The translations under genes were made by a program, and so were the position numbers. A stretch of 37,937 bases of DNA, taken from a virus. The notes beneath the pieces are model-generated. The model saw nothing but the letters and a program-made list of their open reading frames with translations, had not been told where the DNA came from and did no database searches. Positions 3,731 to 37,390 of the stretch are shown here, piece after piece. The DNA lies in IMG/VR virus record IMGVR_UViG_3300027996_000081, positions 1 to 37,937 of that record; one strand, written 5' to 3'. How positions within the stretch are numbered: the stretch's first letter is position 1; each line of letters begins with the position of its first letter.

Positions 3731-6700
3731 TTATGGATTATCATTATCTTTTAAGTCAAAAGCCAATAAAACTGATTCAAAAGCGTTAAAGGCTTTCTCA
3801 GGAGAATCCTCTGGAACTATAAAGTTGTTGATGGCTGTATATATAGATGATGTCCCTGTTGGTAGTTTGGTTGTTGGTGGTTGTGGTGTTAATATAACAC
3901 CGGCAACATCGTATGCACTTTTATACTTATCTTTTAGTTCTTTCCCAGTGGGGGACTTGTTTTTCCAAACATATATAGCGGTTTTAAAAGCCTCTTCAAA
4001 ATTACTACTTACTTTATCAGGGTTATTAAGATAATTATCAGTAGTCAACACACTTGTTTTACTATAATTATAATATTCTTCTCTACCGGTTAACCATAAA
4101 AACCCTCTAGGTTTAAATCTAAAACCGTCACCAGGATAAATATTAAAATATGTAAACCCAGTCGCAATTCGTTTATCAACAGTGTCTATTTCCTTTTGTA
4201 CTTGTACTTCGGTAAGATACCCATATTCATCTGGTGCTTTTTTACCATTTAAAATAGCTGTTTTTTTTCTCTCTATAAACACTTCATAGTCAACTACTTC
4301 TGTCTCATACTTATTTGGTGTTATTGATGCCATCGCAAAATTACTTTCCACAGTACCTGTAAATGTGGGTGTACTACCATATTTAGTCCCAGCAGCATTC
4401 TTTAATTCATCGTAAAAGGGGTTATCGGTACTTGGTGGGTTTTCACCATATGACCTTGTTTTTTTATCATAAATGGTGTCTGTAAATAGTACTCTTTCCA
4501 TACTTTTGGTATCTGTCCAACTTAAACCATAAAGTGATAAATAATTAGACTGTGACATAATATTGGCGACAAACATACATACTTGGGTATTATTTATGAT
4601 GCCAGCATTTTTTATGAGAATTTTAACCTTATCTAATTCAGCCTGAGCATCAGTACCTGCCGGTAAAACACTTTGCCAAATAACACCCATTTCTTCAAAA
4701 TTACTTACTTTCCATTTATCAAAGTCAAATGCTTCTGTAGGGTCATTTACACCTATTTTATATAATGGATTATGAGGACTTAAATTAGTAAATTTAAATG
4801 GTGGTAATTTATTTGTTTCATTTAAATCTAAGTTTAAGTCTGCTAAGATGTCTTCATTCGGCTTACTTATATATTTTGATTGTCTAACCCCTTGAAAATT
4901 TGTAGTCATATGATTTGGGGATATACTATGATTCACACTAGTTATAAGATAAGCACCATTAAAAAACGGTACATTTTCTAAATTAAAGTACATTAATGGT
5001 TGTATATTCATACAACCTAATGCATCTACTTTACACGTATACGACCTAGTTTTAAATAATCTAAGAAGATCTGTCCCCTGATAAACTTTTTGCGTTCCAC
5101 CTCTTTTATCCACCAAATCAGCTAGTGCCTTAAAGTATTCACCAGTTTCTTTATGTTCTTGTTGGTTAAGAGATACGTTTTTAAAGATAGTTTGATTTTC
5201 TGACCCAAATCCTACCCTAAAACCCACTAAGGTATTACCACCAGTATTAGTTATGTCAGCAGGTGGATTGGATAAGGAGAACCCGTCATTAGCAAACTGA
5301 TACTTATTTTTTTCACCGATGTCTAATGCTTGTGATGCACCACCTACATAAATACAACAATATATTGGTCCTGTTGAGTTATTATTTTTAAGTGTTGTTA
5401 CTGGTCTAAACATTTTAGAAATTTCTTTAGGGTCAGTAAAGTTTACATATGTAGGTAGTATTTGAAATAGGAAATTACTATCTCTTAATAATTTAGCCAT
5501 AAAGTAATATACACTAGTTTGTAAATTACTACCTAAAGTTAAAAAACTATTTAGATTTATAGTCGCCTTATCACCTATATTATTCCAACCCCTATCAACA
5601 AATTTAAAATAATCAAACAACGATTGTTCACCACTGCCCGACCCACATACATTAAAACATTTCTTTGTGTCAGAAACCCATTTATCATTTATATTCTTAA
5701 AGTAATTATAAATCTGTAATTTTATTATGTTAGTAGATTTAGTGCTACTCTCTTCTGTTGCAGAATTATCTTGACCACTTTCTTCTCTACCTTCTTCTAC
5801 ATCATTATAAGTAGTTAAAAAATTATCAACATATTCTTTAATATCACTTACTTTTGCCGTGAGTTTTTCTGGTACACCGTTATCTGTATCAAAAACTGCT
5901 GGTGCCAATACTACCATATTAACAGTCTCTAACAAAACTCTTCTTATGTCTGCACCAGATGTCGATATATCTTCTGCTGAAGGATCAGGACCACTATATG
6001 TCTTCATATCATATTCAAACCCAGATGACGCACCAACACCAAATGATCCACCATCTACCCATTTTTTAAATTTCTCTATAAATAAATTTTTTGTGTTCAA
6101 TGGCATATTTAACAATTCAGGTTCTAAAGGTACATCATCTTTAGTAACAACAGTAGCTAAGTAACCAACCTTAGTTAAATATGATGATTGTAGTGTTTGG
6201 TATTTTGAAAAAGAGCAGCCTGAATAATCTATATTCCAATCAATTACACCTCCCGATGCTTTCCATAAATAACCACCGATGAAATATATATAATATTCTG
6301 GTAAATTAATTATCTTGGGGTTCATATAAGACCCATTAGGAAATGCAGCTGTTAATACCGCCTCTTTAAAAGTTTTAAATGGTAAAGTAGACAACAATAA
6401 AAGTGCTTTAGCATAATCACTTTGTTTACTATAGTACTCACTTTGTATTAAAAATTTTGGGGGTTCACAATCTTCCTCACCTAAAGAAAAATTTGTCCTA
6501 TTTAAAAAAGAACCTCCATCAGGTACGGTGGTACCAGATAAATCAATATCAGATATTAGACTATCAATTAAAAACGTGTTATAATTATTGTTTGACACAC
6601 CATCTAATTTTTCAGAAACCTTTTGGTCCCATACATTATAAGATATTTTTGTTAATATATTACTATGGTCGTATGTTTCTTTATAAAACTTTCCAATCTT

Positions 6701-24160: not shown

Positions 24161-25849
24161 CTATACTCTGTCTTGTAACGTAAAACTAGCCCATATCCTA
24201 TCTTCTTTTGATATTAATTTTTTATTAAGAACTATCATTTTATCATCTGGCATATTAATTGCCCTTTCTACCGCCTTTTGTGCTCTGGGATTATCAAACT
24301 CTGCTTTACCACCACTTTGTGTAACAATATCTTCACCCATTTTCGTCCTTATTCTATATTCGTCTCTCCCCTTTTTCATTACAACACCCAACTTTCTAGA
24401 TCCATCCATTATATTGTATTTTTGACCCAAAGTACCACCTTTAGCTTTTATACTTTCATGATCTATATTTGAAAACCATCTATCCCTTAACTCATTAATC
24501 GATGACTTACCTCCACGTAACTTATCCCACCTATTAAGTTGTGAATGAAATTTACCTACACAAAATTCATACGTATCAGTAGGGTTCTCGTTCCCCTTAT
24601 TAATGTACTTCTTTAAAGACATCTTAGAACTAATTTTAGACATGACAGTTAATTTTTCTTTACACAGTTTAAATGTCTCTTTTAATGTTTTTTTACCATT
24701 CTCTAAATCATTCTTTAAATCACCAATAGTCTTTGTATTTATATTTGTATTAACGGGTACATACACAGGCGTCTCGATCCCTTCATCATTAAGAATAGAT
24801 ATCTTTTTTGATTGTATGTCCGGATTTTTGTTGTGTTCCCCATCCAATTCCTTAACAATTATATCGTATTTCTTTCTATACCCATATTTCTTACCATCTT
24901 TATCCACCTTAATGTAATAATCAATATCATCACCCGGTCTCTGGGATACATTATATTCAATTTCAGTCCATAACTCAATATCAACTGTAGTGTTTCCTAC
25001 GTTGTGAGTTTGTGTAGTTTCTCCTCCACCTTCTGGTGCTGGTTCTTCTCCACCTTCTGGTGCTGCCTCTTCTCCACCACCTTCACCTTCACCACCTTGT
25101 TCTTCTGGTGCTTCTGGTGTTGTTAATAAACTATTAACAGCTGATTCTACAGTTTGATCAACTAATTCTGATAATTCTACTTTTTCGTCATCAGTCAGTT
25201 CACGAGTCCAAGAGTCATCTTCGAACCACCCCGATTTTTCTACACCATTAGTAATCTCAGTACCTACCCCATATTGTGTCCCATCCTTAAAGAACCCTTT
25301 ATAGCTATCGCCTGTATCATTTTCGTAGAACCCATAACCACTCCATTCCCCATCGACAAATGATCCTGTATATGACATCGACCCATCAGGATCTTTCCAC
25401 TTTCCAAAACCATTTACACAATCCCAATCCCCCTCCAAACAACCTTGAACTGCTTCATCTGTTTCATCTGTAGCTACATCCATAACCTCCACATTAATCA
25501 TCTCTAAATCTTCTTGAGTTTCTTCAGATATAACTGAATAATTACTTTCATTAATTTTAAATTTTTTATTTAAACCCTTAACAGTTTCTTCACCAGCGAT
25601 ACCATCATCCTCTAAACCATTATCACTTTGGAATTTCATTAAGGCTTCTTTTGTTTTTGGACCAAAAATACCGTCATCTTTAACTTTTAAGAGTCTCTGT
25701 AAAGGTTTAACCACATCAGGTGATGATCCTGTTTTAATTACACCTTCCCTTATATCCCCTTCAACTAAATTACCAAACATTCTTTCTTCTGTAAACAGAG
25801 ATTTTATTCTATTAATCTCTTCGTTTATTGATTTATATTTTTTTATCAT
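24161..25849 (-). CDS. Predicted processed virion protein with peptidoglycan-binding and MORN repeats
   Basis: A 562-aa protein. N-terminal module: INEEINRIKSLFTEERMFGN, then LVEGDIREG, giving L-V-E-G at 28-31. Residues about 45-95 are a clear PG_binding_1 domain (PLQRLLKVKDDGIFGPKTKE, then ALMKFQ). Residues about 135-195 contain MORN-type repeats (GSMSYTGSFVDGEWSGYGFY, then GDSYKGFFKDG.QYGVG). A Gly/Glu/Pro-rich linker follows near 245-275 (EEAAPEGGEEPAPEGG). The C-terminal region of about 270 aa is unassigned. It leads the three-gene operon (12-nt gap to the next gene) with a late-type motif 25 nt upstream. A virion protein that engages the host cell wall fits the domains. The C-terminal activity is unknown. 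Confidence 0.8.
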   Translation of the reverse strand: MIKKYKSINEEINRIKSLFTEERMFGNLVEGDIREGVIKTGSSPDVVKPLQRLLKVKDDGIFGPKTKEALMKFQSDNGLEDDGIAGEETVKGLNKKFKINESNYSVISEETQEDLEMINVEVMDVATDETDEAVQGCLEGDWDCVNGFGKWKDPDGSMSYTGSFVDGEWSGYGFYENDTGDSYKGFFKDGTQYGVGTEITNGVEKSGWFEDDSWTRELTDDEKVELSELVDQTVESAVNSLLTTPEAPEEQGGEGEGGGEEAAPEGGEEPAPEGGGETTQTHNVGNTTVDIELWTEIEYNVSQRPGDDIDYYIKVDKDGKKYGYRKKYDIIVKELDGEHNKNPDIQSKKISILNDEGIETPVYVPVNTNINTKTIGDLKNDLENGKKTLKETFKLCKEKLTVMSKISSKMSLKKYINKGNENPTDTYEFCVGKFHSQLNRWDKLRGGKSSINELRDRWFSNIDHESIKAKGGTLGQKYNIMDGSRKLGVVMKKGRDEYRIRTKMGEDIVTQSGGKAEFDNPRAQKAVERAINMPDDKMIVLNKKLISKEDRIWASFTLQDRV

Positions 25850-25959: not shown

Positions 25960-26835
25960 TTAAGATAAATGTCTTTTGAGTTCACCTATAACCCATTCGG
26001 GTTTATCGTTGATATCAGTCTCCCAAAAACGAAGTAACTTTAACCCATCACTACCCTCACAAATTTTATTTTTTTTATCGTCATTTTTAATTGTTGTTTT
26101 TTGTGTCTCATAAATTGGTCCGTTTGGGTACTTAATAGGGTTACAATGGTAAAAATCACCATCTACTTCTATCACTAAATCATATTTAGGTAAATAATAG
26201 TCAAAATTAAACCCACAAATAGTATATTGGAATATAAAATCCACCCCAATCGACTCCAATAAATCACCAAAACGTGATTCTAATATTGTTTTATTATTAT
26301 ATTGATAATCCTTTAAATATTTAACCCTTTTTTTACGTTGTTTTTCCCTGTTCTCCTCTTTACTCCAATATTCCCTCATACCCTTATCGAGACTATCTAA
26401 AACATGTTGGGGTCTTTTTCTTCCTTTTCTGTATTCAGATATTTTTTTATTCCTTTCTAAATTATTAGATATTTTCTCACCATAGTCCAATCTTTTGTCA
26501 TCGTATTTGGTTAACCCCTTATTCCATATAACTAACTCACCAGATCCGTACAATCTTCTTTGGGTATCTTTAGACTTTTTCTGTGCGTCAGGATTATGAC
26601 CCCAATTATTGTTAATTCTAGAAGAGTGACCACGAATAAAATCTCTAAAGCCCTTTTTAATACTTAAAAATGATGGAGTTTCACCACACCCACAATTACA
26701 TTTTGGTGATATGCCTTCTAAATTATGTTTAATAAAGGTTTCTTGTGGTTTGATATCATGTTTTTTGACATTATGAGATGATAATCCCCATAATGAATCA
26801 AAGTCTTTATCACATATTTCACATTTGTGTTGCAT
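25960..26835 (-). CDS. Free-standing homing endonuclease (zinc finger plus Vsr-like nuclease)
   Basis: A 291-aa protein. Residues 5-26 form a C2H2 zinc finger (C5, C8, H21, H26), followed by a Cys cluster (CNCGC). A basic middle region (RKGRKRPQHVLD, then KEENREKQRKKRVKYLKDY) resembles nuclease-associated modular DNA-binding repeats. Residues about 190-285 form a Vsr/EDxHD-type PD-(D/E)XK nuclease: FDYYLPKYDLVIEVDGDFYH, then a late LKLLRFWETDI. Such genes spread by cutting a phage genome at a nearby target and being copied in. It sits directly after the tail tube gene, has its own terminator, and its start lies beside a motif inside the previous terminator. It is selfish DNA rather than part of the tail. 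Confidence 0.85.
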   Translation of the reverse strand: MQHKCEICDKDFDSLWGLSSHNVKKHDIKPQETFIKHNLEGISPKCNCGCGETPSFLSIKKGFRDFIRGHSSRINNNWGHNPDAQKKSKDTQRRLYGSGELVIWNKGLTKYDDKRLDYGEKISNNLERNKKISEYRKGRKRPQHVLDSLDKGMREYWSKEENREKQRKKRVKYLKDYQYNNKTILESRFGDLLESIGVDFIFQYTICGFNFDYYLPKYDLVIEVDGDFYHCNPIKYPNGPIYETQKTTIKNDDKKNKICEGSDGLKLLRFWETDINDKPEWVIGELKRHLS

Positions 26836-26900: not shown

Positions 26901-27389
26901 CTAGAAAACATTGATGGCCCTATCAAACCGGAGCGTACAACTAATCTCAGCTAAAGAATCTGAATTATAGTCTAATGTACCGAAATCAGCGTCATTTAAT
27001 TGAGTTCCTTGTAGTATCCATTTCTGAACAACAACACCGGTTGGGTCTAACATTTCCAATTCAACGTCTTTTTTGTAACCAGCCGCATAACCTTGTCGTC
27101 CTGTTACTGATTCTGAATGTAATCTAACCCATTCCATTAAAGCTTGTGTAGCTGAAGGACCAATTGGATCTCTAAATGTCACCCCTATAGTTTCCCACTG
27201 AAATCTACCTATCACAAACGTAGATGTATTTAAGAAAGGTATTTCTACCTCACTACTAGTATATTTTGGTCGACTTGTTGTTGATACCCACCATTCTTGT
27301 ATTCCCAGTTCATCGGGAAACCTTAAAATAAACCTATTCTGTCTTAATGGTTCATAAGGAACAGGCATTCGCATTAATAAATCCGCCAT
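26901..27389 (-). CDS. gp19: Tail tube protein (T4 gp19-like)
   Basis: A 162-aa protein, the same length class as T4 gp19 (163 aa). Landmarks are the N-terminal MRMPVPYEPLRQNRFILRFP, then WWVSTTSRP, then IGRFQWETIGVTFRDPIGPS, then ALMEWVRLHSE, then LDPTGVVVQKWILQGTQL, and the C-terminal LAEISCTLRFDRAINVF. These fit the gp19-type tube fold that stacks as hexamers inside the sheath. It is a single-gene unit with a late-type motif 58 nt upstream and a strong terminator after it. Two homing endonuclease genes flank it, one on each strand. Confidence 0.9.
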   Translation of the reverse strand: MADLLMRMPVPYEPLRQNRFILRFPDELGIQEWWVSTTSRPKYTSSEVEIPFLNTSTFVIGRFQWETIGVTFRDPIGPSATQALMEWVRLHSESVTGRQGYAAGYKKDVELEMLDPTGVVVQKWILQGTQLNDADFGTLDYNSDSLAEISCTLRFDRAINVF

Positions 27390-27472: not shown

Positions 27473-29095
27473 GTGGATTATAAAAAGTTTTTTTTAGAAA
27501 ATAATAAATCTGGATTAAAAACCAGAGAATCTTATATTGAAAATAATTATAATGAAATATATAATTCAATTAACCTTTATTGTGATAGTATAAACTTAAA
27601 TGGGGTTATTCCGTTTAAAGAAAAAATATATATCTTCATAAATAAATTAAGTGATACCCCCATATGTAAAAATTGTGATAAAAAATTAAAGTTTAAGAAA
27701 AGTTTAAGAGAGGGGTATGGTAGTTATTGTTCCATAAAATGTACAAACCAACACGAAGATCATAAAAACAACGTTAAAGAAACATTTAACAGAAAATATG
27801 GTGGTTCACCAATAAGGGATAAGGGTATAAAGAAAAAAATAGAACAAACAAACTTAGAAAGGTATGGTGTTACAAATATATTTAAAGATAGTGAATACAT
27901 ACAAACCAAAACTAAAGAGAAGTTAGGGGTATCCAACCCAAACCAATTAGATAGTGTAGTAGAAAAAAGGAAAAACACTAACCTCAACAAATATGGTGTA
28001 ACCAACACACTATTATTAAATAACTCCCGTAAAAAGAACCAAAGTTCAAAACTAATTAATTTTAATGAAAAATATAAGGGGTTAAATGTTATTGACGATT
28101 CTGGTGATTATGTTAAACTTAAATGTAATAACTGTAATGGTGAATATGATATAGATAGGAGTCTATTGTTCTATAGATTTAAAAATGATATAAACCCTTG
28201 TACGTTATGTAACCCTGTAAGTGAGTTAAAATCTATAAAAGAAAAAGAACTAACAGATTTTTTATTATCTTTGGGGTTAAACCTTATTCAGGGTGATAGA
28301 GATATTCTTAATGGTAAGGAGATTGACATACTATTACCTGATTTTAATATCGGTATAGAATTTAATGGTTTGTATTGGCATTGTGAGAAATATGTTGATA
28401 AGGATTACCATTTAAATAAAACTGATGTGTGTGAGTCCAAAGGGATACACCTAATACATATCTTTGAAGACGAATGGGTTAATAATAAGGATATTGTTAA
28501 AAGTAGGTTAAAAAACTTATTTAAATTAACTGATAATAAAGTATATGGTAGAAAATGTATAATAAAAGAAGTTAATACTAAAGATAAAACAAAATTCTTA
28601 AATGATAACCATATTCAAGGTACAATAGGTAGTAAAGTTAATATAGGGTTGTATTATAACGATGAGTTGGTATCGATTATGACATTTGGTAAAGGTAGGG
28701 TTGTTATGAATGGTGTTAAAAATGAATGGGAGTTATTAAGGTTCTGTAATAAAATTAATCATTCCGTTATCGGTGGGGCTAGTAAACTATTTAAACACTT
28801 TATTAAAAACTATAACCCAAAACAATTAATAAGTTACGCTGATAGAAGGTGGTCACAAGGTAACTTATATAGTCAATTAGGGTTTAATAAAACACACAAC
28901 TCAACGCCAAACTATTTTTATGTTGTTAACAATGAAAGGGAACATAGATTTAAATATCGTAAGAATTTATTGGTTGAGTCTGGATTTGACATTAAAAAAA
29001 CTGAAAGAGAAATTATGTATGATAGGGGAATATATCGTATATATGATTGTGGGAATTTGGTTTATATTTATAATAAGATGGAAATTTCTTTCTAA
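27473..29095 (+). CDS. Homing endonuclease (Hef-like, Vsr-type nuclease)
   Basis: A 540-aa protein from a GTG start, as no ATG lies upstream in frame. Residues about 58-85 hold a zinc-ribbon pair (CKNC, then YCSIKC). Several YGV/YGG repeats follow at 102-180 (FNRKYGGSP, LERYGVTNIF, LNKYGVTNTL), the DNA-binding NUMOD-like repeats of this group. A second Cys pair lies at about 223-247. The nuclease core is EIDILLPDFNIGIEFNGLYW, then H, with the EDxHD/Vsr pattern, and a later IHLIHIFEDEW. The C-terminal 170 residues (GGASKLFKHFIKNY, then ISYADRRWSQGNLY) are typical of these phage enzymes. It is on the opposite strand to the tail genes, which marks it as an insertion between the tube promoter and the secreted-protein gene. 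Confidence 0.85.
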   Translation: MDYKKFFLENNKSGLKTRESYIENNYNEIYNSINLYCDSINLNGVIPFKEKIYIFINKLSDTPICKNCDKKLKFKKSLREGYGSYCSIKCTNQHEDHKNNVKETFNRKYGGSPIRDKGIKKKIEQTNLERYGVTNIFKDSEYIQTKTKEKLGVSNPNQLDSVVEKRKNTNLNKYGVTNTLLLNNSRKKNQSSKLINFNEKYKGLNVIDDSGDYVKLKCNNCNGEYDIDRSLLFYRFKNDINPCTLCNPVSELKSIKEKELTDFLLSLGLNLIQGDRDILNGKEIDILLPDFNIGIEFNGLYWHCEKYVDKDYHLNKTDVCESKGIHLIHIFEDEWVNNKDIVKSRLKNLFKLTDNKVYGRKCIIKEVNTKDKTKFLNDNHIQGTIGSKVNIGLYYNDELVSIMTFGKGRVVMNGVKNEWELLRFCNKINHSVIGGASKLFKHFIKNYNPKQLISYADRRWSQGNLYSQLGFNKTHNSTPNYFYVVNNEREHRFKYRKNLLVESGFDIKKTEREIMYDRGIYRIYDCGNLVYIYNKMEISF

Positions 29096-29216: not shown

Positions 29217-29792
29217 ATGAAAAAATTAATTTTAATAATCGGAATCCTAATTGGATTAACAATTGGTGTATCAGCTGAAGTGAGAGAAGATACAGTAACA
29301 AGAAAAAACTCACTAACCCAAAGAAGTGTAATCAAAAAGAATTTTGAAACATCATTTACCAATGAACTGGTGAAATACATCGAAACAGGTGACGTAACAC
29401 CTTTATTAGACTTGGCTCAAGAAGATGATATAACCTTTTATGGGTTAAGTGATGATAAATACGAACTAAGTGAGGACAAAGAATACTTCAAACAATTTAT
29501 TAAGAAGTACTTAAATGTTCGATCCAAAGATTTAACCATACTTCGTATTGATAAGGAATATTATGACAATTCTAATCACAAGTTTGGTTCAAAATATAAA
29601 ATAACTATTCTATATCCTAATTCAGAAAGATACGATAACGTACAAATTTATTATAGTTGGGCTGGTAAAGTTAGAGGAATCACAATCAACGATAATCTAC
29701 AAGAAAACTCATACACAGATGGTGATTTAAATAAAATATTTGGTGGTGAGTCTGGTTATGAAGGTGAGCGTGTAAGTTGGAAAAAGTTGTAA
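29217..29792 (+). CDS. Secreted or periplasmic protein, probably a cargo (moron) gene
   Basis: A 191-aa protein with a clear signal peptide: MKKLILIIGILIGLTIGVSA, with cleavage expected after A20. The mature part starts EVREDTVTRK and has an alpha/beta composition (FTNELVKYIETGDVTPLLDL, then KYKITILYPNS, then YYSWAGKVRGITIND). The N-terminal helices followed by strands could fit an NTF2-like fold of Bacteroidetes exported proteins, but this is only a resemblance. It has its own host-type promoter, a bidirectional terminator after it, and the strand opposite to the tail genes. These are typical marks of a lysogenic-conversion or envelope-modifying cargo gene. Confidence 0.75.
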   Translation: MKKLILIIGILIGLTIGVSAEVREDTVTRKNSLTQRSVIKKNFETSFTNELVKYIETGDVTPLLDLAQEDDITFYGLSDDKYELSEDKEYFKQFIKKYLNVRSKDLTILRIDKEYYDNSNHKFGSKYKITILYPNSERYDNVQIYYSWAGKVRGITINDNLQENSYTDGDLNKIFGGESGYEGERVSWKKL

Positions 29793-29869: not shown

Positions 29870-30322
29870 TTAATTAAATGGAACGATCCCAATAGAATCT
29901 TGAAAACCCTTTTTTATGGTTGCAAAAACAGTTGAATCCTTCTTACTACAATGTTCATCCTGACAAGCACCCACTAACCTTAAGAAGTCTCTGGATTGAA
30001 TAGCCCTTTGCCATTTACCATTAGAGAATACCTTCCCAGCACTAACTCGACCTTCTTTATTTTTTACATATACTGAATAAAAGGGTAATTTAAGTTTTTT
30101 AGTTTTTGGGTCTTCAAGTTGTGTCTTATGTATTAATACAGTACCCGGTAATTTAACATGTGATGCTCCGCCAGGTTTAAACGGAAACTCCCATTGTGTC
30201 TTCCCACCTGTGGTAGCATCGGCAACTGGAGCTTCATCTTGTTCTTTTATCACTTTTTTTACAATACGTCTTAAATCTGACTCTGTTAGATTTATAACTT
30301 TTCCGTTTTTCTTAATTTTCAT
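29870..30322 (-). CDS. Predicted internal virion protein with the shared N-terminal module, unrelated body
   Basis: A 150-aa basic protein. Residues 1-28 (KKNGKVINLTESDLRRIVKK, then VIKEQ) are almost identical to those of the genes at 30359 and 32233. They end in I-K-E at 25-27, a T4-like processing site. The body (WEFPFKPGGASHVKLPGTVL, then KLPFYSVYVKNKEG, then GKVFSNGKWQRAIQSRDFL) is not like the five-paralog family, so only the tag is shared. It is the last gene of the array, 36 nt after the preceding gene, and ends at the bidirectional terminator. The function is unknown. Confidence 0.75.
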   Translation of the reverse strand: MKIKKNGKVINLTESDLRRIVKKVIKEQDEAPVADATTGGKTQWEFPFKPGGASHVKLPGTVLIHKTQLEDPKTKKLKLPFYSVYVKNKEGRVSAGKVFSNGKWQRAIQSRDFLRLVGACQDEHCSKKDSTVFATIKKGFQDSIGIVPFN

Positions 30323-30325: not shown

Positions 30326-30358
30326 CTATTTTATTTTTTTATTAATCTTTTCATTTTA

Positions 30359-30832
30359 TCAAACGTCAATTTCGGGGTCAACCGTAAAATATTCGCTTTT
30401 ACCATTTGGACCATAGATGTTTACGGAACAATTATGCTGCCGCCATTCACCTATCTCCCTAACAATACACGTAATCCAATTCTCAATTTTTTTATAGTTT
30501 TGGTTAGTCATATCTACCTCCGACTCCAATCTATTTATCGCTAAATGTTTATACGCTTGTGCCGCTGCAGCATCATTATCACTATCATCATTAAATGGTC
30601 TGAAGAATTTAACATACTCCGTATCATTACCATATATATCTTCAGGGTTATCGAACCAATTGCTGCTACCTTCCCACCATTTTTGTATACTTCCACAAAA
30701 TGCCACTGCTACATTATATTCCTCTAGTTCGTTTGCTGGTGATTCATCTTGTTCTTTTATTACTCTTTTTACTATTTTCTTTAAATCTGACTCCGTTAGA
30801 TTTATAACTTTCCCGTTTTTCTTAATTTTCAT
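30359..30832 (-). CDS. Predicted internal virion protein, five-paralog family member
   Basis: A 157-aa acidic protein. The N-terminal tag is the shared LTESDLKKIVKRVIKEQ type (I-K-E at 25-27). The body shows the array family pattern: IQKWW near 50, then F....DDSDNDAAAAQAYKHL, then NYKKIENWITCIVREI, then YFTVDPEIDV at the C-terminus. No catalytic signature or membrane segment is seen. It has its own late-type motif 36 nt upstream. The end of the gene is identical at DNA level to the end of the gene at 32233. The family is unknown to me. A small protein injected with DNA, as T4 internal proteins are, is the working idea. Confidence 0.8.
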   Translation of the reverse strand: MKIKKNGKVINLTESDLKKIVKRVIKEQDESPANELEEYNVAVAFCGSIQKWWEGSSNWFDNPEDIYGNDTEYVKFFRPFNDDSDNDAAAAQAYKHLAINRLESEVDMTNQNYKKIENWITCIVREIGEWRQHNCSVNIYGPNGKSEYFTVDPEIDV

Positions 30833-30835
30833 AAT
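30743..30835 (-). repeat. Copy 2 of the N-terminal tag repeat
   Basis: It encodes residues 1-30 of the 157-aa gene. It shares long runs with copies 1 and 3 but carries several base changes (for example in the codons for KKIVKR). Confidence 0.8.
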
Positions 30836-30867
30836 ACCCTATTATTATTATTATTATTATCTTTTTA

Positions 30868-30875
30868 TATAAATA
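30868..30875 (-). promoter_or_regulatory. Late-type promoter motif, second unit of the paralog array
   Basis: The minus strand reads TTATATTTATATAAAAAGAT. About 22 nt around it match the motif region before the gene at 32233, so the promoter was duplicated along with its gene. The start at 30832 lies 36 nt downstream after an ATA/ATT repeat. An inverted repeat GTAACTT/AAGTTAC lies just upstream (30881-30897). Confidence 0.6.
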
Positions 30876-30909
30876 TAAGTAACTTACAAAAAGTTACCTC
30901 TTAATTTTA

Positions 30910-31377
30910 TCACCACCAATCTATTTCTGGGTCAACAGTATATGTTACAGCCCAAGAATCCTTAACATCTACCACTGAAGGTGGTTCTAAAGTCATATAA
31001 CATTTCTTATTTTTCCAGTTAGGTATTTCATCTACAATTTTATCAAACCATTCTTCAAACTTATATAACCAATAATTATCCTTTAATCTTGGTAAGTACT
31101 TTTTGTTTACAAAATTTCTATATGCTTTCGCAGCCCCTTTATCGTCATCTTTATACCAGTGATTAAACTCTTTGAAAAAACCATATCTGTCATCATGTTT
31201 CTCCCACCAAGCCTGAACCTCTTCAGCAACATCCTTAGCAATCTCCCATTGACCTCCGTAGTTTTTTATGTTACCACCGTCAACATATTGTCCCTCTATG
31301 TTTTGATTAGAACTTTCCCATAATACCTTTTTAATTATATTATTTAAGTCTTTTTCTTTTAATTTAATAATTTTCAT
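30910..31377 (-). CDS. Predicted internal virion protein, five-paralog family member
   Basis: A 155-aa protein. The N-terminus MKIIKLKEKDLNNIIKKVLW, then ESS, ends with L-W-E at 19-21. Body: VAEEVQAWWEKHDDRYGFFK, then FNHWYKDDDKGAAKAYRNFV, then FEEWFDKIVDEI, ending YTVDPEIDWW. It is closest to the next gene upstream (31386), with which it shares the FNHWYK and DDDKGAA stretches. It follows that gene by 8 nt in one unit. The function is unknown. Confidence 0.8.
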   Translation of the reverse strand: MKIIKLKEKDLNNIIKKVLWESSNQNIEGQYVDGGNIKNYGGQWEIAKDVAEEVQAWWEKHDDRYGFFKEFNHWYKDDDKGAAKAYRNFVNKKYLPRLKDNYWLYKFEEWFDKIVDEIPNWKNKKCYMTLEPPSVVDVKDSWAVTYTVDPEIDWW

Positions 31378-31385
31378 AATGTATT

Positions 31386-31787
31386 TTAAAAATAATCTAT
31401 TTCTGGGTCAACATAAAATGAAGATGATTTATAATATGGTGCACCTGTTTTGAGGTAAATCCAACATTTATCATTTTTTACGTCATCTATTTCATCTACA
31501 ATATCATCAAACCATTTCTCAAATTGTTTATAATATTTATTATCTGTACCCAATTCCTCTAAATATTTTTCAGCTTCTTTTACCTTATAGTCTTCCGCAG
31601 CCCCTTTATCATCATCAAATTTATACCAGTGATTAAATCTTCTGAAAAACGGATATCTATCGTCACCTTTCCACCAGTCCTCAACTTCTTGAGCTACTAT
31701 CACAGCGTGTTTGTAATCGTAATCCACACCACCCGTATCGGTATCAACTGTCTCCTCCACTAATATTTTTTTTATTAATTTTTTCAT
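31386..31787 (-). CDS. Predicted internal virion protein, five-paralog family member
   Basis: A 133-aa protein with the shortest tag: MKKLIKKILVEET, L-V-E at 9-11. Body: VAQEVEDWWKGDDRYPFFRR, then FNHWYKFDDDKGAAEDYK, then FEKWFDDIVDEIDD, ending FYVDPEIDYF. It is strongly acidic in the second half. It lies 6 nt after the gene at 31794. The family is unknown. The conserved pattern (WW, DDD.AA, IVDEI, VDPEID) suggests a compact helical fold with a short C-terminal strand. Confidence 0.8.
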   Translation of the reverse strand: MKKLIKKILVEETVDTDTGGVDYDYKHAVIVAQEVEDWWKGDDRYPFFRRFNHWYKFDDDKGAAEDYKVKEAEKYLEELGTDNKYYKQFEKWFDDIVDEIDDVKNDKCWIYLKTGAPYYKSSSFYVDPEIDYF

Positions 31788-31793
31788 AATAAC

Positions 31794-32228
31794 CTACCAA
31801 TCAGTGTCCACATAAAATTTCTTATTATTACCGTCTCTTAAAGAAGATTCTAAATAACAATAATTCTGAAACGCTAAATCATCAATTTCATCCTCTATAC
31901 AATCGAACCATTTAACAAAATCGGTATAATAGTGGTTATCACTCCCCAGTTGTCTCAACCATGTATTAGACATATTTTTCTCATATTCTTTTGCAGCATC
32001 ATCATAATCATCAATGAAATCATTTTCAAAACGTTCAAAAAAGTCAATTCTCTTTTGACTTCTCCACCACACGTCAACTGCATTAGCGATTTCTAACGCT
32101 TTAACTTTATCTTTTTTTTCTTTTTGAAAAAAGTGTTGATCGTTATTACCAGATGTACTGGGCCAGTATTTTCTAGGGCTGCGTTCGGTGCGTTGCTCTA
32201 TTAATATTTTTTTTATTAATTTTTTCAT
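31794..32228 (-). CDS. Predicted internal virion protein, diverged five-paralog family member
   Basis: About 144 aa, taking the start at MKKLIKKILIEQ (32228). An upstream in-frame ATG at 32255 would overlap the previous gene, and its extra residues do not match the family. The tag ends L-I-E at 9-11. Body: IANAVDVWWRSQKRIDFFER, then DDYDDAAKEYEKN, then FVKWFDCIEDEIDD, ending FYVDTDW. The usual C-terminal VDPEID is worn down to VDTDW. It lies 4 nt after the gene at 32233. It is the most divergent of the five paralogs. Confidence 0.75.
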   Translation of the reverse strand: MKKLIKKILIEQRTERSPRKYWPSTSGNNDQHFFQKEKKDKVKALEIANAVDVWWRSQKRIDFFERFENDFIDDYDDAAKEYEKNMSNTWLRQLGSDNHYYTDFVKWFDCIEDEIDDLAFQNYCYLESSLRDGNNKKFYVDTDW

Positions 32229-32232
32229 TTTA

Positions 32233-32682
32233 TCAAACGTCAATTTCGGGGTCAACCCTATAGGAAGAACTTACACCATCCCCTGTTAACCTCAAAGATA
32301 CTATATCTTGGTAATTATCATCTATTTCATCTACAATATCATAAATAAAGTTTTTAAGTTGTCCATAATATAAGTTATCGTTCCCAACCTCCCTATTTAA
32401 ATCATCCATAGCCTTATCTCTATATGACTTTGCAGCTGCGCTATCAGCATCATTCGCAAATTGGAACTTGGAAAAAAAATCATGGTAACCCTTATATTTA
32501 CCTTTTCGTATATTAGTCCAATCACTACTACCACCCCACCAATCCTCTATATTTTTAGCAAAGTTAGATGCGGTATCATAATCAGAATTTCCATCATATT
32601 GTTCTTTTATTACTTTTTTTACAATACGTCTTAAATCTGACTCTGTTAGATTTATAACTTTTCCGTTTTTCTTAATTTTCAT
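32233..32682 (-). CDS. Predicted internal virion protein, first five-paralog family member
   Basis: A 149-aa protein. The shared tag is LTESDLRRIVKKVIKEQ (I-K-E at 25-27). Body: FAKNIEDWWGGSSDWTNIR, then DADSAAAKSYRDKAMDDL, then YYGQLKNFIYDIVDEIDD, ending YRVDPEIDV. It leads the array, with a late-type motif 27 nt upstream. Both ends of the gene match the gene at 30359 at nucleotide level while the middles differ. The function is unknown. Confidence 0.8.
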   Translation of the reverse strand: MKIKKNGKVINLTESDLRRIVKKVIKEQYDGNSDYDTASNFAKNIEDWWGGSSDWTNIRKGKYKGYHDFFSKFQFANDADSAAAKSYRDKAMDDLNREVGNDNLYYGQLKNFIYDIVDEIDDNYQDIVSLRLTGDGVSSSYRVDPEIDV

Positions 32683-32685: not shown

Positions 32686-32708
32686 ATGTTAATATTACTA
32701 TCTTTTTA

Positions 32709-32716
32709 TATAAATA
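32709..32716 (-). promoter_or_regulatory. Late-type promoter motif, first unit of the paralog array
   Basis: The minus strand reads TTATATTTATATAAAAAGAT, 27 nt before the start at 32682. This is the same block as at 30868. It begins soon after the stop of the 294-aa gene at 32735. Confidence 0.6.
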
Positions 32717-32734
32717 TAAGTTACTTATAAAAAG

Positions 32735-33619
32735 TTACTTCTTAATTAATTTTGTATCAACGAATTGTTTCTCCCATTCCGAAATATGACCTTCACCAAT
32801 AAAATAAATTCCACACTCTAAATTATTTTTAATATGTTCCCTTCTTCCTTCGGTTGCGGTATCCGCCATATTAACCAATAAATTATTCCCTTCTTTATAT
32901 CCATAGTTATCTCTATCATCCCACATCATTAAAAACCCAGTATTGATAAATTTTCTTATATTTTCATCTGTGGGTGGCGCTTCTAATAAGGACATTATGG
33001 TATCAGAGTTTGGTGTTCCCTTAATTTGATCAATAAACCATCCCTTTTCTTCGTCATTATAATCCAAACTATCATCCCAAAACATTGTAACGCCACTACC
33101 TTTCATTATTAATTCCTTTATACTATTGGGTGGGTTATCACTTAATTTTTCCAATTCAGATTTTAATATTTTATCTTGATTATTCCCCCATTGTCCTTCT
33201 CCTTGACCGCCATTGGAAAAGAATGTATACATATGAGTTTTTTTATAATCATTTCCTTTAGATTCAATTTCTTCACCGCTGGGTTCATAAGAATCATTAC
33301 AATTAACATTATTTATCCCAATATCATTAAAGAAATGTTCAATGTTATTTAAATCGTCCCCACCAGACCCTTCATAGTAATAACCGCAATTCGTTGCAAT
33401 TGATTTTATTTTATCTATTTGTGATGAATTAATATCTTCTTTTGTTAAATAATTTTCTTTATTTTTATCAAAATGATCCACACCTATTATAATACTATCT
33501 TGTTTTGGTCCTTGTATAATAATTGTACCATGATTGTTTGATGGGGTAATTTCATCTTCTTCTTTAATTAACCCCATTATGGACTTAATTCTGTTAATCT
33601 CTTCGTTTAATGTTTTCAT
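32735..33619 (-). CDS. Predicted processed virion protein, 294 aa
   Basis: Begins MKTLNEEINRIKSIMGLIKE, a tag of the INEEINRIKS type ending I-K-E at 18-20. It is close to the tags of the 562-aa protein and the internal module of the 1322-aa protein. The body is acidic and soluble: GTIIIQGPKQDSIIIGVDHF, then a Gly/Asn-rich stretch, then two MFWDD/MMWDD segments and a late CGIYFIGEGHISEWEKQF. No known family is recognised. Its start overlaps the upstream HAD-like gene by four bases (ATGA), so translation is coupled. Confidence 0.75.
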   Translation of the reverse strand: MKTLNEEINRIKSIMGLIKEEDEITPSNNHGTIIIQGPKQDSIIIGVDHFDKNKENYLTKEDINSSQIDKIKSIATNCGYYYEGSGGDDLNNIEHFFNDIGINNVNCNDSYEPSGEEIESKGNDYKKTHMYTFFSNGGQGEGQWGNNQDKILKSELEKLSDNPPNSIKELIMKGSGVTMFWDDSLDYNDEEKGWFIDQIKGTPNSDTIMSLLEAPPTDENIRKFINTGFLMMWDDRDNYGYKEGNNLLVNMADTATEGRREHIKNNLECGIYFIGEGHISEWEKQFVDTKLIKK

Positions 33620-34437
33620 TTCTTAATTATTATTCTTTTCTTTTTGGGGTTCTGTGGATCTGAAGTATCGTACACCAAAAACCTTATCTCTGGATATTTT
33701 TGTTTTAATTTTTCTTCTATTAACTTTTCAACAACCTCAACGTTACTGATATCATCATCACTAAACCCAATACTAATACCTTCAAAGTCATCGGTATCTT
33801 GATATGAACTAACTCTATCTACAACCCTATCGACAAAATCTTCGAACGCTATCTTCTTACCCTCTTCTGGGTTTGTGGAATCTATATCCAACCCCCATTT
33901 ATTAATAAACTCTTCTGAAGAAACTGGGTGGTAATCTTGTAAATTAAGATATTCGTCTATTGTTACCCCATTTAAATTGTTTTTCATCTCTTCTTGTTCA
34001 TCATAATTAAAAGATTTTCGAATAATTAACTTTATACCGTCTTTAATCGCTCGTGGCGGGTTTGATCTAGCTGTTATAATAGAGAAGTCGCTACCACTAA
34101 TTAAAGCCTCTTTAAACTTATTAAAACTAGGTCCATAACTACGACTATCTAACGCTTCTTCAGTGTCACTTATAAAAGCATCATATCCTTCAAAATCTTT
34201 AAATGATTCACCCTCATTATCATTTAAAAATCTAAACTCCGTACCTAACTTATGTCTAATACTTCTAAATTCTTCTGTTGATACGGATACTGGAACCCAA
34301 GCTAAACCATTAACGTTATAATCCAAATGAATTCTTGTTGACATCATAAGAATGTTATCGTCCCAATCAAAAGAGTAAGCTCTTTTTTTAAATTCTTTTA
34401 ATAATTTATATTGAGATTCGGTAAGTTTAACTTTCAT
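33616..34437 (-). CDS. HAD-like hydrolase with an N-terminal tag
   Basis: About 273 aa from the start MKVKLTESQYKLLKEF. A longer in-frame start at 34473 would run through the sheath terminator and is rejected. HAD superfamily motifs are in order: FDWDDN with D24 and D26 (nucleophile and acid/base), SIITARS with T122, K194/K195, and GFSDDD with D227-D229. It should therefore hydrolyse a phosphate ester or phosphoryl group. The substrate is not evident. The first 16 residues, ending L-K-E at 13-15, look like the tag of the neighbouring unknown proteins. A late-type motif lies 6 nt before ATG. ATGA coupling to the next gene suggests the two are made together. Confidence 0.8.
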   Translation of the reverse strand: MKVKLTESQYKLLKEFKKRAYSFDWDDNILMMSTRIHLDYNVNGLAWVPVSVSTEEFRSIRHKLGTEFRFLNDNEGESFKDFEGYDAFISDTEEALDSRSYGPSFNKFKEALISGSDFSIITARSNPPRAIKDGIKLIIRKSFNYDEQEEMKNNLNGVTIDEYLNLQDYHPVSSEEFINKWGLDIDSTNPEEGKKIAFEDFVDRVVDRVSSYQDTDDFEGISIGFSDDDISNVEVVEKLIEEKLKQKYPEIRFLVYDTSDPQNPKKKRIIIKK

Positions 34438-34442
34438 ATTCT

Positions 34443-34450
34443 TATAAATA
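34443..34450 (-). promoter_or_regulatory. Late-type promoter motif before the HAD-like gene
   Basis: The minus strand reads GAATATTTATAAGAATATG, with the start codon at 34437. The leader would be very short or absent. It lies just downstream of the sheath terminator. Confidence 0.5.
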
Positions 34451-34461
34451 TTCTTGGAAAT

Positions 34462-34486
34462 AAAAAAACCCACATATAGTGGGTTT
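34462..34486 (-). terminator. Terminator of the tail sheath gene
   Basis: AAACCCAC (34466-34473) and GTGGGTTT (34479-34486) are perfect 8-bp arms with a 5-nt loop. On the minus strand the second arm runs into seven T. It lies about 25 nt after the sheath stop codon. Confidence 0.85.
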
Positions 34487-34510: not shown

Positions 34511-37390
34511 TTAGATATCATCAAAGTTTGCACCAGTGTTAGTGATGTTAAATTCGATACTAATGTATTCTAACGATCTTGTTGGTTTGATAAATACCCT
34601 ACCATTTAACTCATTTCTATCAATTGATTCTGGAGTATCATCCAACGTTACCCTAAAGTCTGTTAAACCTCTTTCCTTTCTAATGTTATCCAAAATTGGA
34701 TTAACTAAACTTAAGAACTGATTTCTAACAACCTCATCATTTTGTTCAAATAACAATCTGATTGAAACCGCTGATATAAGTTTTCTAGCTTGTAACAACA
34801 ATCTTCTAACATTAATTCTGTTAAGAGCTGTTTCTTTAACTTGTAACGTTTTGTTACCAAAGATTACAACACCAACATCAGAGAATGTAGCCATTGGGTT
34901 AATTCTTCCTTCATATAAAGTATCTCTATCATCCAATCTAAGTTTCACTCTCGCTTTAACTGCGTTTGTTGTTCCTCTATTTAAACCAGCTGCTGCGAAC
35001 CAAGGGAACGCTACGTTATCTGTCAGTGCAATGTTTCTCATAACCTCAACAGTAGGTGGTAACCATACGTATCTGTTATTTTCTGTATCATTCATCTGTA
35101 ACCATGGCCAGTATGTAGCTGAATAGTTTGAATCGATTCCCGAATCTTCTACTAAGTCAACCGCCTCACCGACAGTTAATGCTACGTTATCTGCATCAAC
35201 ATCTGGTGTGGTCATAACATAAAGCGAATCTGCTCTATCAACCTCAACCATATCCACAGCACCCTCTACTAAACTAATTTGATTCTGTAAATCTAACCCT
35301 GGTGAAGCGAATACATTAATGTTAACCGCTTCTGGGTTATTATATGTATAAATACCATCTAAGAATGCGTAGTAATCAGAAGTAATACCATCATCTCCCT
35401 CAGAAGTAACATACGTATCAAACAAACCACTTTGGAACCCTACAGATCCTTTACTACCAGTTTTAGTGTAACTATCACCGTTTGTTCTTTGTGTTCTATA
35501 TTCATCCCACCCATCATATCCACCGAAAGGTGTGAATGTAAATTTCCTAGCTGCTAATTTTTCATATGGTCCACCGACTAAACCACTGTCTGTAGTAAAT
35601 GCTGATACACCAACTTGTAATGATGGTGTGTATGTGTTAACACCCGCATCAATAACACCGCTAGTTGAGTTCACATCTAAATGGAACCCATCTGTTCTAC
35701 CACTATATGTGTTTTTACCGTTAGCATCGGTAATACCAACACTAACTTTTTTTATACCTTTATAATCGAAGAAGTCTTGATCAACACCTATAGTTGAATT
35801 TAACCCTAAATAAGTTTTTCTTAGTTTAGAGGTAGTAAATTCAGAATAAGCAGTTTTATATTCTATCTTTGGTGCGATTGCGGTACGATTACTACCTACA
35901 TATGTTCTATTTAACACACCCTCGAATCCAGCTGGAAAATGATTCTTTAAATCTGGATCATTTTCATCGTACAACTCAACCATTATATATTTACTTCTTA
36001 ACGGATATTCACCATCAGTAGTACCAATTTTTCTAGCTATGTAACCATTTGATGTACTATCCATAGATAAGTTAGAGAATTTTTCTACAACTGACGGATT
36101 AGCGTCAGTGTCATTAAAGTTTCTAATCATTAAATCAAAAGTTTTGTTATCTGGTCTAATGTTTATAATTGAGAATTTAACGTCTTCGTTAGCCGCATTA
36201 CCATCTGATATCGTAATAAACCTAAATAGTCTTTGTAATGTGGAACCTGCACCTAAACCTTTAAGTTCCGATAAAACCCAAGGTGAATAAGCCGATAACC
36301 ATTTTTCTTTATAATCATTTAAGTTATCTGTAGTTGTTGAACCGATATTAACAAAATCAATATCTAACCCTCTTACCTTTTCGTTGGTAATTAAGTCTTC
36401 TAATACATTACCATAAATTTCTTCTACCCATAACTCAGTCTCTTTATCTTGAGGTGAACTACCGAATACTTTAGGTAAGTAATTTTTAGATGTTTTATCC
36501 ATTGAAACGTCATAATCAATAGATAACCCAGCACTAGTAGTACCTGTAATTTGGAAGGACGCTAATGAGTCACTTGGAAGGTTTGAGGTGTTAAACATCG
36601 CAACGTCTGTAGAACCAGTAATATCAAACACTAATTGTTCAGCTCCGTTATATGTCCCTCTCGATCTAAGTGTTGCAATCACGCTACCATCGATATCACT
36701 ATAACAACTAGCGGTGTATGATACCACAGTACCTGATGTTGTACCAGTTACAAACCCTGGTGTAGTTCCCGTTGCGATTACTTCCATATCAAAAGTAGCC
36801 CCACTAAAAGTACAAGCTGTTTCATCTTTTATATATGCTGGTGTGGTAATTGATATTGTACTACCCGTATCCAATAAACCAATAGATGTAAATGATGGGG
36901 TTATCTGACCAGCATCATATAGTGCTTGTAAATTAGCGTCACCTACAAAGTCCATAGTTATTGGAGTCCCTGCGGTTGTTGCAGTATAATTTAAAAGTGG
37001 GTTAGGCGAACTTGTAGAACCACTAGCTTCTGTTGCTGGATCGTGTGCCGCATCCAACGTTATACTCCACGCATTTCCTGCGTCATAACCAGACAAACCT
37101 AAAACCCTACTTACCCATAGTTGGTTTGTTTGAGTTAAAAATGATTTTGCAATGTAATTGAGTTCATATTTTTGAAACCCATTACCTTTAAATTTTTCAG
37201 CGTTTAACCCACCAAAATAACTAATAAACTCATCGTAATTAGAAATAAAGACTGGTTCAAAAGCTGGTCCTTTAGGTGTTTCCCCTAATAACCCTAATGT
37301 AGTTACCCCTACTTGTCTAGTTACGAATGTTAAATCCTTCTCTGATGTAAAAACACCTGGACTTACAAATATTCTATCTGTTGATGCCAT
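34511..37390 (-). CDS. gp18: Tail sheath protein (T4 gp18-like)
   Basis: A 959-aa protein, longer than T4 gp18 (659 aa). The N-terminus is characteristic: PGVFTSEKDLTFVTRQVGVT, then LLGETPKGPAFEPVFISNYD, then FGGL, then YIAKSFLTQTNQLWVSRVLG. The C-terminal core is also typical: WLPPTVEVMRNIA near 750, then LYEGRINPMATFSDVGVVIF, then RRLLLQARKLISAVSIRLLF, then FIKPTRSLEYISIEFNI. The extra length is mostly a beta-rich, Ser/Thr/Gly-rich insertion at about 115-310, probably on the outside of the sheath. It contracts around the tube to drive DNA delivery. It is a single-gene unit with an upstream late-type motif and a strong terminator. Confidence 0.92.
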   Translation of the reverse strand: MASTDRIFVSPGVFTSEKDLTFVTRQVGVTTLGLLGETPKGPAFEPVFISNYDEFISYFGGLNAEKFKGNGFQKYELNYIAKSFLTQTNQLWVSRVLGLSGYDAGNAWSITLDAAHDPATEASGSTSSPNPLLNYTATTAGTPITMDFVGDANLQALYDAGQITPSFTSIGLLDTGSTISITTPAYIKDETACTFSGATFDMEVIATGTTPGFVTGTTSGTVVSYTASCYSDIDGSVIATLRSRGTYNGAEQLVFDITGSTDVAMFNTSNLPSDSLASFQITGTTSAGLSIDYDVSMDKTSKNYLPKVFGSSPQDKETELWVEEIYGNVLEDLITNEKVRGLDIDFVNIGSTTTDNLNDYKEKWLSAYSPWVLSELKGLGAGSTLQRLFRFITISDGNAANEDVKFSIINIRPDNKTFDLMIRNFNDTDANPSVVEKFSNLSMDSTSNGYIARKIGTTDGEYPLRSKYIMVELYDENDPDLKNHFPAGFEGVLNRTYVGSNRTAIAPKIEYKTAYSEFTTSKLRKTYLGLNSTIGVDQDFFDYKGIKKVSVGITDANGKNTYSGRTDGFHLDVNSTSGVIDAGVNTYTPSLQVGVSAFTTDSGLVGGPYEKLAARKFTFTPFGGYDGWDEYRTQRTNGDSYTKTGSKGSVGFQSGLFDTYVTSEGDDGITSDYYAFLDGIYTYNNPEAVNINVFASPGLDLQNQISLVEGAVDMVEVDRADSLYVMTTPDVDADNVALTVGEAVDLVEDSGIDSNYSATYWPWLQMNDTENNRYVWLPPTVEVMRNIALTDNVAFPWFAAAGLNRGTTNAVKARVKLRLDDRDTLYEGRINPMATFSDVGVVIFGNKTLQVKETALNRINVRRLLLQARKLISAVSIRLLFEQNDEVVRNQFLSLVNPILDNIRKERGLTDFRVTLDDTPESIDRNELNGRVFIKPTRSLEYISIEFNITNTGANFDDI

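What the first reader, a model, noticed from the sequence alone, without database searches (positions are those of the whole stretch)
30359..32682. Tandem array of five paralogs of an unrecognised small-protein family
The genes at 32233, 31794, 31386, 30910 and 30359 share one body pattern: ...(I/V)..WW..., FF..F, D-rich then AA..Y, F..W...I.DEI, C-terminal Y.VDPEID. They are 133-157 aa, acidic, tagged with the L/I-x-E module and strongly diverged in between. Tandem, fast-diverging small tagged proteins recall the T4 internal proteins, one of which (IPI) blocks a host restriction enzyme. An anti-defence or host-takeover role is only inference.
Basis: partly seen in the sequence, partly recalled or inferred. 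Interest (0 to 1): 0.8.

Follow-up and report, generated by a model that had tools for sequence, protein, structure and literature searches.

The report
Shuffled array of virion-cargo-like phage proteins
A far-T4-like water phage carries five diverged copies of a previously unrecorded small protein, each behind an exchangeable N-terminal leader that ends in the same cut-site motif as the phage's head proteins, so they are probably packed in the virus head and injected into the host, perhaps to disarm its defences.

Summary
Five tandem genes (30359-32682, minus strand) encode one acidic protein family; their bodies align far above shuffles (z 7-30). Models of g1 and g3 show the same order of elements (helices, then a beta-hairpin), with no PDB or viral-library match. 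The family is in no annotated library searched and no GenBank phage, but occurs in uncultivated relatives (14 sequences here). One relative keeps g1-g4 in order. Between these orthologs the bodies change about 3-6 times faster than flanking tail genes, mostly under purifying selection; the leaders hardly change. The leader is a separate module: four classes occur on this one body family, the same classes sit on unrelated bodies, a sixth gene (29870-30322) has g1's leader on an unrelated basic body, and body-less leader stubs remain. All leaders end in [I/L]xE. Relatives encode a gp21-type (S77) prohead protease, and their capsid proteins keep [L/I]xE at the expected cleavage point. Best reading: leader-targeted, protease-trimmed head cargo, injected and probably anti-defence, in an exchange hotspot between sheath and tube genes. 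Packaging is strongly suggested, not shown; anti-defence is inference. Unlike T4 internal proteins, the copies are homologous, acidic and in a tail-gene locus.

The parts
32233..32682 (-). g1, paralog 1 (149 aa), leader class A
   Evidence: ortholog h1 in L124
31794..32228 (-). g2, paralog 2 (144 aa with ATG start), leader class B
31386..31787 (-). g3, paralog 3 (133 aa), leader class B; AF2 model pLDDT 82
30910..31377 (-). g4, paralog 4 (155 aa), leader class C
30359..30832 (-). g5, paralog 5 (157 aa), leader class A; extra g1-type copy not in L124
32599..32682 (-). leader of g1, MKIKKNGKVINLTESDLRRIVKKVIKEQ
   Evidence: dN 0.07 against ortholog, omega 0.09
32193..32228 (-). leader of g2, MKKLIKKILIEQ
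31752..31787 (-). leader of g3, MKKLIKKILVEE
31312..31377 (-). leader of g4, MKIIKLKEKDLNNIIKKVLWES
30749..30832 (-). leader of g5, MKIKKNGKVINLTESDLKKIVKRVIKEQ
29870..30322 (-). g6: g1's leader (99% of 84 nt) on an unrelated basic body (pI 9.6)
30331..30354 (-). leader stub MKRLIKK* right after g5, copy of the g2 start: duplication scar
   Evidence: (repeat D6)
32689..32747 (-). upstream repeat of g1 (59 nt), 92% like that of g5
   Evidence: D8
30848..30906 (-). upstream repeat of g5
   Evidence: D8
32208..32279 (-). 3' repeat: end of g1 plus start of g2
   Evidence: D6
30334..30405 (-). 3' repeat: end of g5 plus leader stub
   Evidence: D6
34511..37390 (-). tail sheath, one border of the variable interval
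   Evidence: phrog_23, E 2.6e-59
26901..27389 (-). tail tube, other border of the interval
   Evidence: tblastn to annotated tail tube genes
27473..29095 (+). homing-endonuclease-like gene in the same interval (REase MTES_1575 and Mom-like parts)
   Evidence: Pfam matches below cut-off for these two domains; similar gene beside the family member in L127

Best explanation
These are virion cargo proteins that work like the T4 internal proteins. The basic N-terminal leader docks the newly made protein onto the prohead core; the gp21-type prohead protease cuts after the [I/L]xE that ends the leader; the small acidic body stays in the head with the DNA and is injected at infection, where each copy most likely binds a particular variant of a host defence factor (a restriction enzyme by analogy with T4 Ip1-3). 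The locus between sheath and tube genes is an exchange site: conserved leader and 3' sequences act as homology handles through which bodies are duplicated, swapped or lost. Shown here: family, array, shared topology of two members, leader conservation against body divergence, leader swapping, exchange at the locus, protease and capsid cleavage motif in relatives. Inferred: docking, cleavage, packaging (about 0.7), injection and action in the host (about 0.55), anti-defence (about 0.4).
For: Paralogy of bodies. Same order of structural elements in g1 and g3 models; in the better model most body blocks are near or above 90 pLDDT and the leader is disordered. Syntenic orthologs of g1-g4 in L124 with body dN 0.23-0.36 against 0.06-0.09 for tube, sheath and HAD-like gene, and leader dN 0.02-0.07. 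One body family with four leader classes, all with [I/L]xE; the same leaders on unrelated bodies. S77 protease in 6 and gp23 in 7 of 12 related records; six of six capsid proteins read keep L/I-N/T-E followed by S/A/T near residue 60, and protease, scaffold-like and core-like proteins have the motif near their N-termini. The motif is enriched at N-termini in G004's accessory region: 17 of 41 against 6.5 +/- 2.3 in shuffles. Gene-for-gene swap between close relatives: L129/L130 carry a family member where L030 carries an unrelated tagged gene, flanks 92-97% identical. Literature: leaders of 10-19 residues target T4 IPs into the head and are removed (PMC9026906); Ip1, Ip2, Ip3 each block a different GmrSD enzyme (PMC12373910).
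Against: I found no virion proteomics for this clade; no member is in the 50,697 GenBank phages. T4 IPs are basic, these are acidic. The window and the records that hold the family lack recognisable head genes, so the protease was seen only in relatives, the nearest (G004, record of L030) 92-99% identical to G017 (L130) around the sheath-tube interval. Leaders also sit on large proteins near tail genes, for example 24161-25849 with a peptidoglycan-binding domain, so the leader may mean something broader than head cargo. No fold or sequence match points to any target.
Confidence: 0.5

Rival explanations
1. The proteins are packaged by their leader but serve head assembly or DNA packing (as IPIII partly does in T4), not the host.
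For: IPIII mutants of T4 assemble heads more slowly (PMC9026906). Copies are maintained, mostly under purifying selection.
Against: Bodies diverge about 3-6 times faster than structural neighbours, copy number varies from 0 to 5 and a close relative has replaced the gene by an unrelated one, which is unlike an assembly part.
Confidence: 0.2
2. The leader is not a head-targeting signal; it is a docking helix for tails, membranes or another phage complex, and [I/L]xE is incidental.
For: The array lies among tail genes, and some tagged proteins are large or have a peptidoglycan-binding domain.
Against: Four leader classes that differ in sequence keep only basic charge and [I/L]xE in common; the same motif stands at the capsid protein's expected cleavage point in six of six relatives and near N-termini of head core genes.
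Confidence: 0.2
3. The array is a drifting duplication by-product of recombination between leader repeats, with no selected function of the bodies.
For: Clear scars and stubs, fast divergence; the g4 ortholog pair has omega 0.91 over the body.
Against: All five frames are open in the window and four in L124; the other ortholog pairs have body omega 0.22-0.52; core residues (WW, FF, AA..Y) are kept across distant relatives.
Confidence: 0.08

Closest known systems
T4 internal proteins Ip1, Ip2, Ip3 (capsid-targeting-sequence cargo, GmrSD inhibitors)
   Same: Small, fast-changing, non-core proteins behind a short N-terminal leader that ends in a gp21-type cleavage motif; in exchange loci; several per phage.
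   Different: T4 IPs are basic and share only the leader; these five share one acidic body family, have leaders of three kinds, and lie between tail sheath and tail tube genes. Packaging and target unproven.
Anti-defence gene clusters (for example anti-CRISPR hotspots) and copy-number-changing counter-defence genes (tifA in T4, PMC9391042)
   Same: Variable small genes at one locus, duplication and replacement by recombination.
   Different: Those are usually not leader-tagged virion cargo; no target known here.
Far-T4 phages (Rhodothermus RM378; marine Bacteroidetes viruses)
   Same: Tail tube, gp23-type capsid and S77 protease relationships; papers PMC4360716 and PMC7198788.
   Different: The array and the class A leader were not found in the annotated phages searched.

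Membership tests
T4-type internal (IP) head proteins | N-terminal leader ending in [I/L]xE | tested here: met
   14 of 14 family sequences
T4-type internal (IP) head proteins | gp21-type (S77) prohead protease and cleaved gp23-type capsid in the same phages | tested here: inconclusive
   Present in related records, including G004, which is 92-99% identical to G017 around the sheath-tube interval; window and family-bearing records are fragments without recognisable head genes
T4-type internal (IP) head proteins | Found inside the mature head, leader removed | not testable with these tools
   needs virion proteomics
T4-type internal (IP) head proteins | Basic bodies | tested here: not met
   pI 4.2-5.0, net -6 to -20; g6 alone is basic
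T4-type internal (IP) head proteins | Sequence or fold relation to Ip1, Ip2 or Ip3 | tested here: inconclusive
   no match in sequence or fold searches
GmrSD / restriction inhibitors | Protects phage DNA from a restriction enzyme | not testable with these tools
   needs bench assay

The most novel reading that the evidence does not exclude
Far-T4-like phages use a set of interchangeable cleavable leaders as a plug-in system for head cargo: any protein that acquires a leader becomes injectable. This array is a multigene family of injected, single-fold inhibitors diversified in tandem to match variants of one host defence, with leader and 3' repeats as built-in recombination handles.
Probability: 0.33. 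Interest if true: 0.78.

Novelty: new variant of a known kind. Interest (0 to 1): 0.6.

Why it matters
If right, it extends head-cargo injection from T4 relatives to a widespread aquatic phage group, gives a sequence rule (leader plus [I/L]xE) to list its whole injected repertoire, and supplies a paralog set in which to ask how one inhibitor fold is diversified against host defences. The leader and exchange findings stand whatever the target.

Tried and rejected
Pfam, PHROGs, NCBIfam and PADLOC gave only chance-level matches for the family. PDB by sequence: only weak hemagglutinin matches, E 0.33 or worse, taken as chance. Foldseek against PDB (both models) and the viral library (g1 model only) and VIA second looks: nothing above background; no fold is thereby excluded. 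GTDB genomes: no relative (alignment A2 could not be searched). A5 in viral contigs: none. GenBank phages by tblastn with g1, g3 and the leader: none; a 28-aa query is weak. DNA mimicry considered and put low: charge is only in the acidic part of the phage's own range. In Flavobacterium phage immuto sheath and tube are adjacent, no array. The full upstream repeat was found only before g1 and g5 and its core is not rarer by chance than observed, so a promoter role is unproven. Body tree: leader classes A, B and D are not single groups, but starred branches do not force more than one origin, so the number of swaps is uncertain.

Full report
Setting. The window is a 37,937-base virus record from a myovirus with T4-type tail genes: sheath at 34511-37390, tube at 26901-27389, whose nearest annotated relatives include Microcystis phage Mel-JY01, Flavobacterium phage immuto and Rhodothermus phage RM378. 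Related records encode a gp23-type capsid and an S77 prohead protease. This is the far-T4 neighbourhood; marine members have been linked in silico to Bacteroidetes (PMC4360716, PMC7198788). The host of this phage is unknown.

The array. Five genes, g1 to g5, run in one direction between the sheath-side genes and the tube. With leaders removed, every pair of bodies scores 7 to 30 SD above shuffled sequence. g1, g5 and the outside relatives form one branch, g2, g3 and g4 with their orthologs another. The predictions for g1 (pLDDT 78, five sequences, models uneven) and g3 (pLDDT 82, pTM 0.77, five consistent models, ten sequences) give the same order: long helix, short helix(es), two long helices, beta-hairpin. 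Coordinates were not superposed, so 'same fold' rests on element order and on the alignment. Neither model matches a solved structure above background, nor does the g1 model match the viral library.

Relatives. Loci outside the window: L007 (99.5% identical to the window), L124 with four genes h1-h4 in the order g1-g4, L008, L127, L128, L129 and L130 with one each. All but L128 lie in the sheath-tube interval; in L128 the gene sits in a run of other leader-tagged genes, with no sheath or tube gene recognised in the 12.6 kb seen. No family member was found in GenBank phages or GTDB genomes.

Leader and body evolve apart. Between g1-g4 and h1-h4, body dN is 0.23-0.36, against 0.06-0.09 for tube, sheath and the HAD-like gene; leader dN is 0.02-0.07 (NG86; short leaders give rough values). 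Body omega is 0.22-0.52 for g1-g3 and 0.91 for g4, whose dS (0.25) is well below that of the flanks (0.64-0.78) and whose identity is patchy, as after recent exchange.

Leaders are modules. The body family carries four leader classes: A MKIKKNGKVI-LTESDL-RIVK-V[IL]xEQ, B MK-LIKKILxE, C MKIIKLKEKDLNNIIKKVLxES, D MGRIEKMKRHFILEANKRILNE and MIRRPWETKRNLILESNKRILGES. Each of A, B and D also stands on unrelated bodies. g6 has g1's leader at 83 of 84 nt with an unrelated body. Two leader stubs without a body were found: MKRLIKK* behind g5 at 30331-30354, and a 34-aa ORF in L127 at about 4960-5064.

Traces of exchange. g1 and g5 share a 59-nt upstream repeat (92%), the leader region (about 89%) and a 72-nt 3' repeat that runs into the next gene's start (85%), while the bodies between are 55% identical in DNA. 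So the ends were copied or homogenised recently and the bodies were not. L129/L130 and L030 have 92-97% identical flanks but different tagged genes in the slot. A homing-endonuclease-like gene lies in the same interval in the window, and a similar one beside the family member in L127; that it drives the exchange is inference.

Why head cargo. In T4, leaders of 10-19 residues bring internal proteins into the prohead core and are removed by gp21 (PMC9026906). In six relatives the capsid protein keeps [L/I]-[N/T]-E followed by S, A or T about 60 residues in, near where T4's gp23 is cut (T4 position from general knowledge), and the protease, scaffold-like and core-like proteins of G004 carry the motif near their N-termini. 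The motif is enriched at N-termini in the accessory region of G004 (17 of 41, shuffles 6.5 +/- 2.3) but hardly in its glycosyltransferase, fibre and tail stretch (8 of 46, shuffles 5.2 +/- 1.9). This ties the leader to the head protease by sequence only; cutting and packaging were not observed.

Why perhaps anti-defence. T4 Ip1, Ip2 and Ip3 each inhibit a distinct GmrSD enzyme (PMC12373910), and T4 without IPIII fails on one natural E. coli strain (PMC9391042). Several fast-diverging, replaceable, probably injected copies fit such a role. Nothing in the sequence or fold names a target, so I put this at about 0.4.

Verdict. It works like the T4 internal protein system; membership is not claimed, since the basic character of T4 IPs is not met and packaging is untested.

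Noticed in passing
window 27473-29095 (+) and 25960-26835 (-): Two homing-endonuclease-like genes flank the tail tube gene; the first has weak matches to MTES_1575 REase and Mom domains, the second matches phage homing endonucleases.
   Followed up: partly
window 33616-34473 (-): Gene with a DWDDN motif (HAD-like by eye), itself with a leader-like start, present in the sheath-tube interval of most close relatives.
   Followed up: no
L008 3622-5283: Three tandem class B-tagged genes with repeated GYW-K-E-DD-GN-IYYEDS units in the same interval of a relative: another tagged paralog array.
   Followed up: no
window 24161-25849 (-): Leader-like N-terminus (NEEINRIKSLFTEERMFGNL) on a protein with a peptidoglycan-binding domain; this leader type recurs in relatives.
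   Followed up: partly
L007 16-996: Patatin-like phospholipase gene just upstream of the sheath, running beyond the window's end.
   Followed up: no
window 29217-29792 (+): Small gene with a signal-peptide-like start, whose N-terminal part differs between the window and the otherwise 99.5% identical L007.
   Followed up: no
L110 7011-10018 (G004): Run of four class B-tagged genes of unknown function at another locus of a relative; one has a DUF4314 domain.
   Followed up: no
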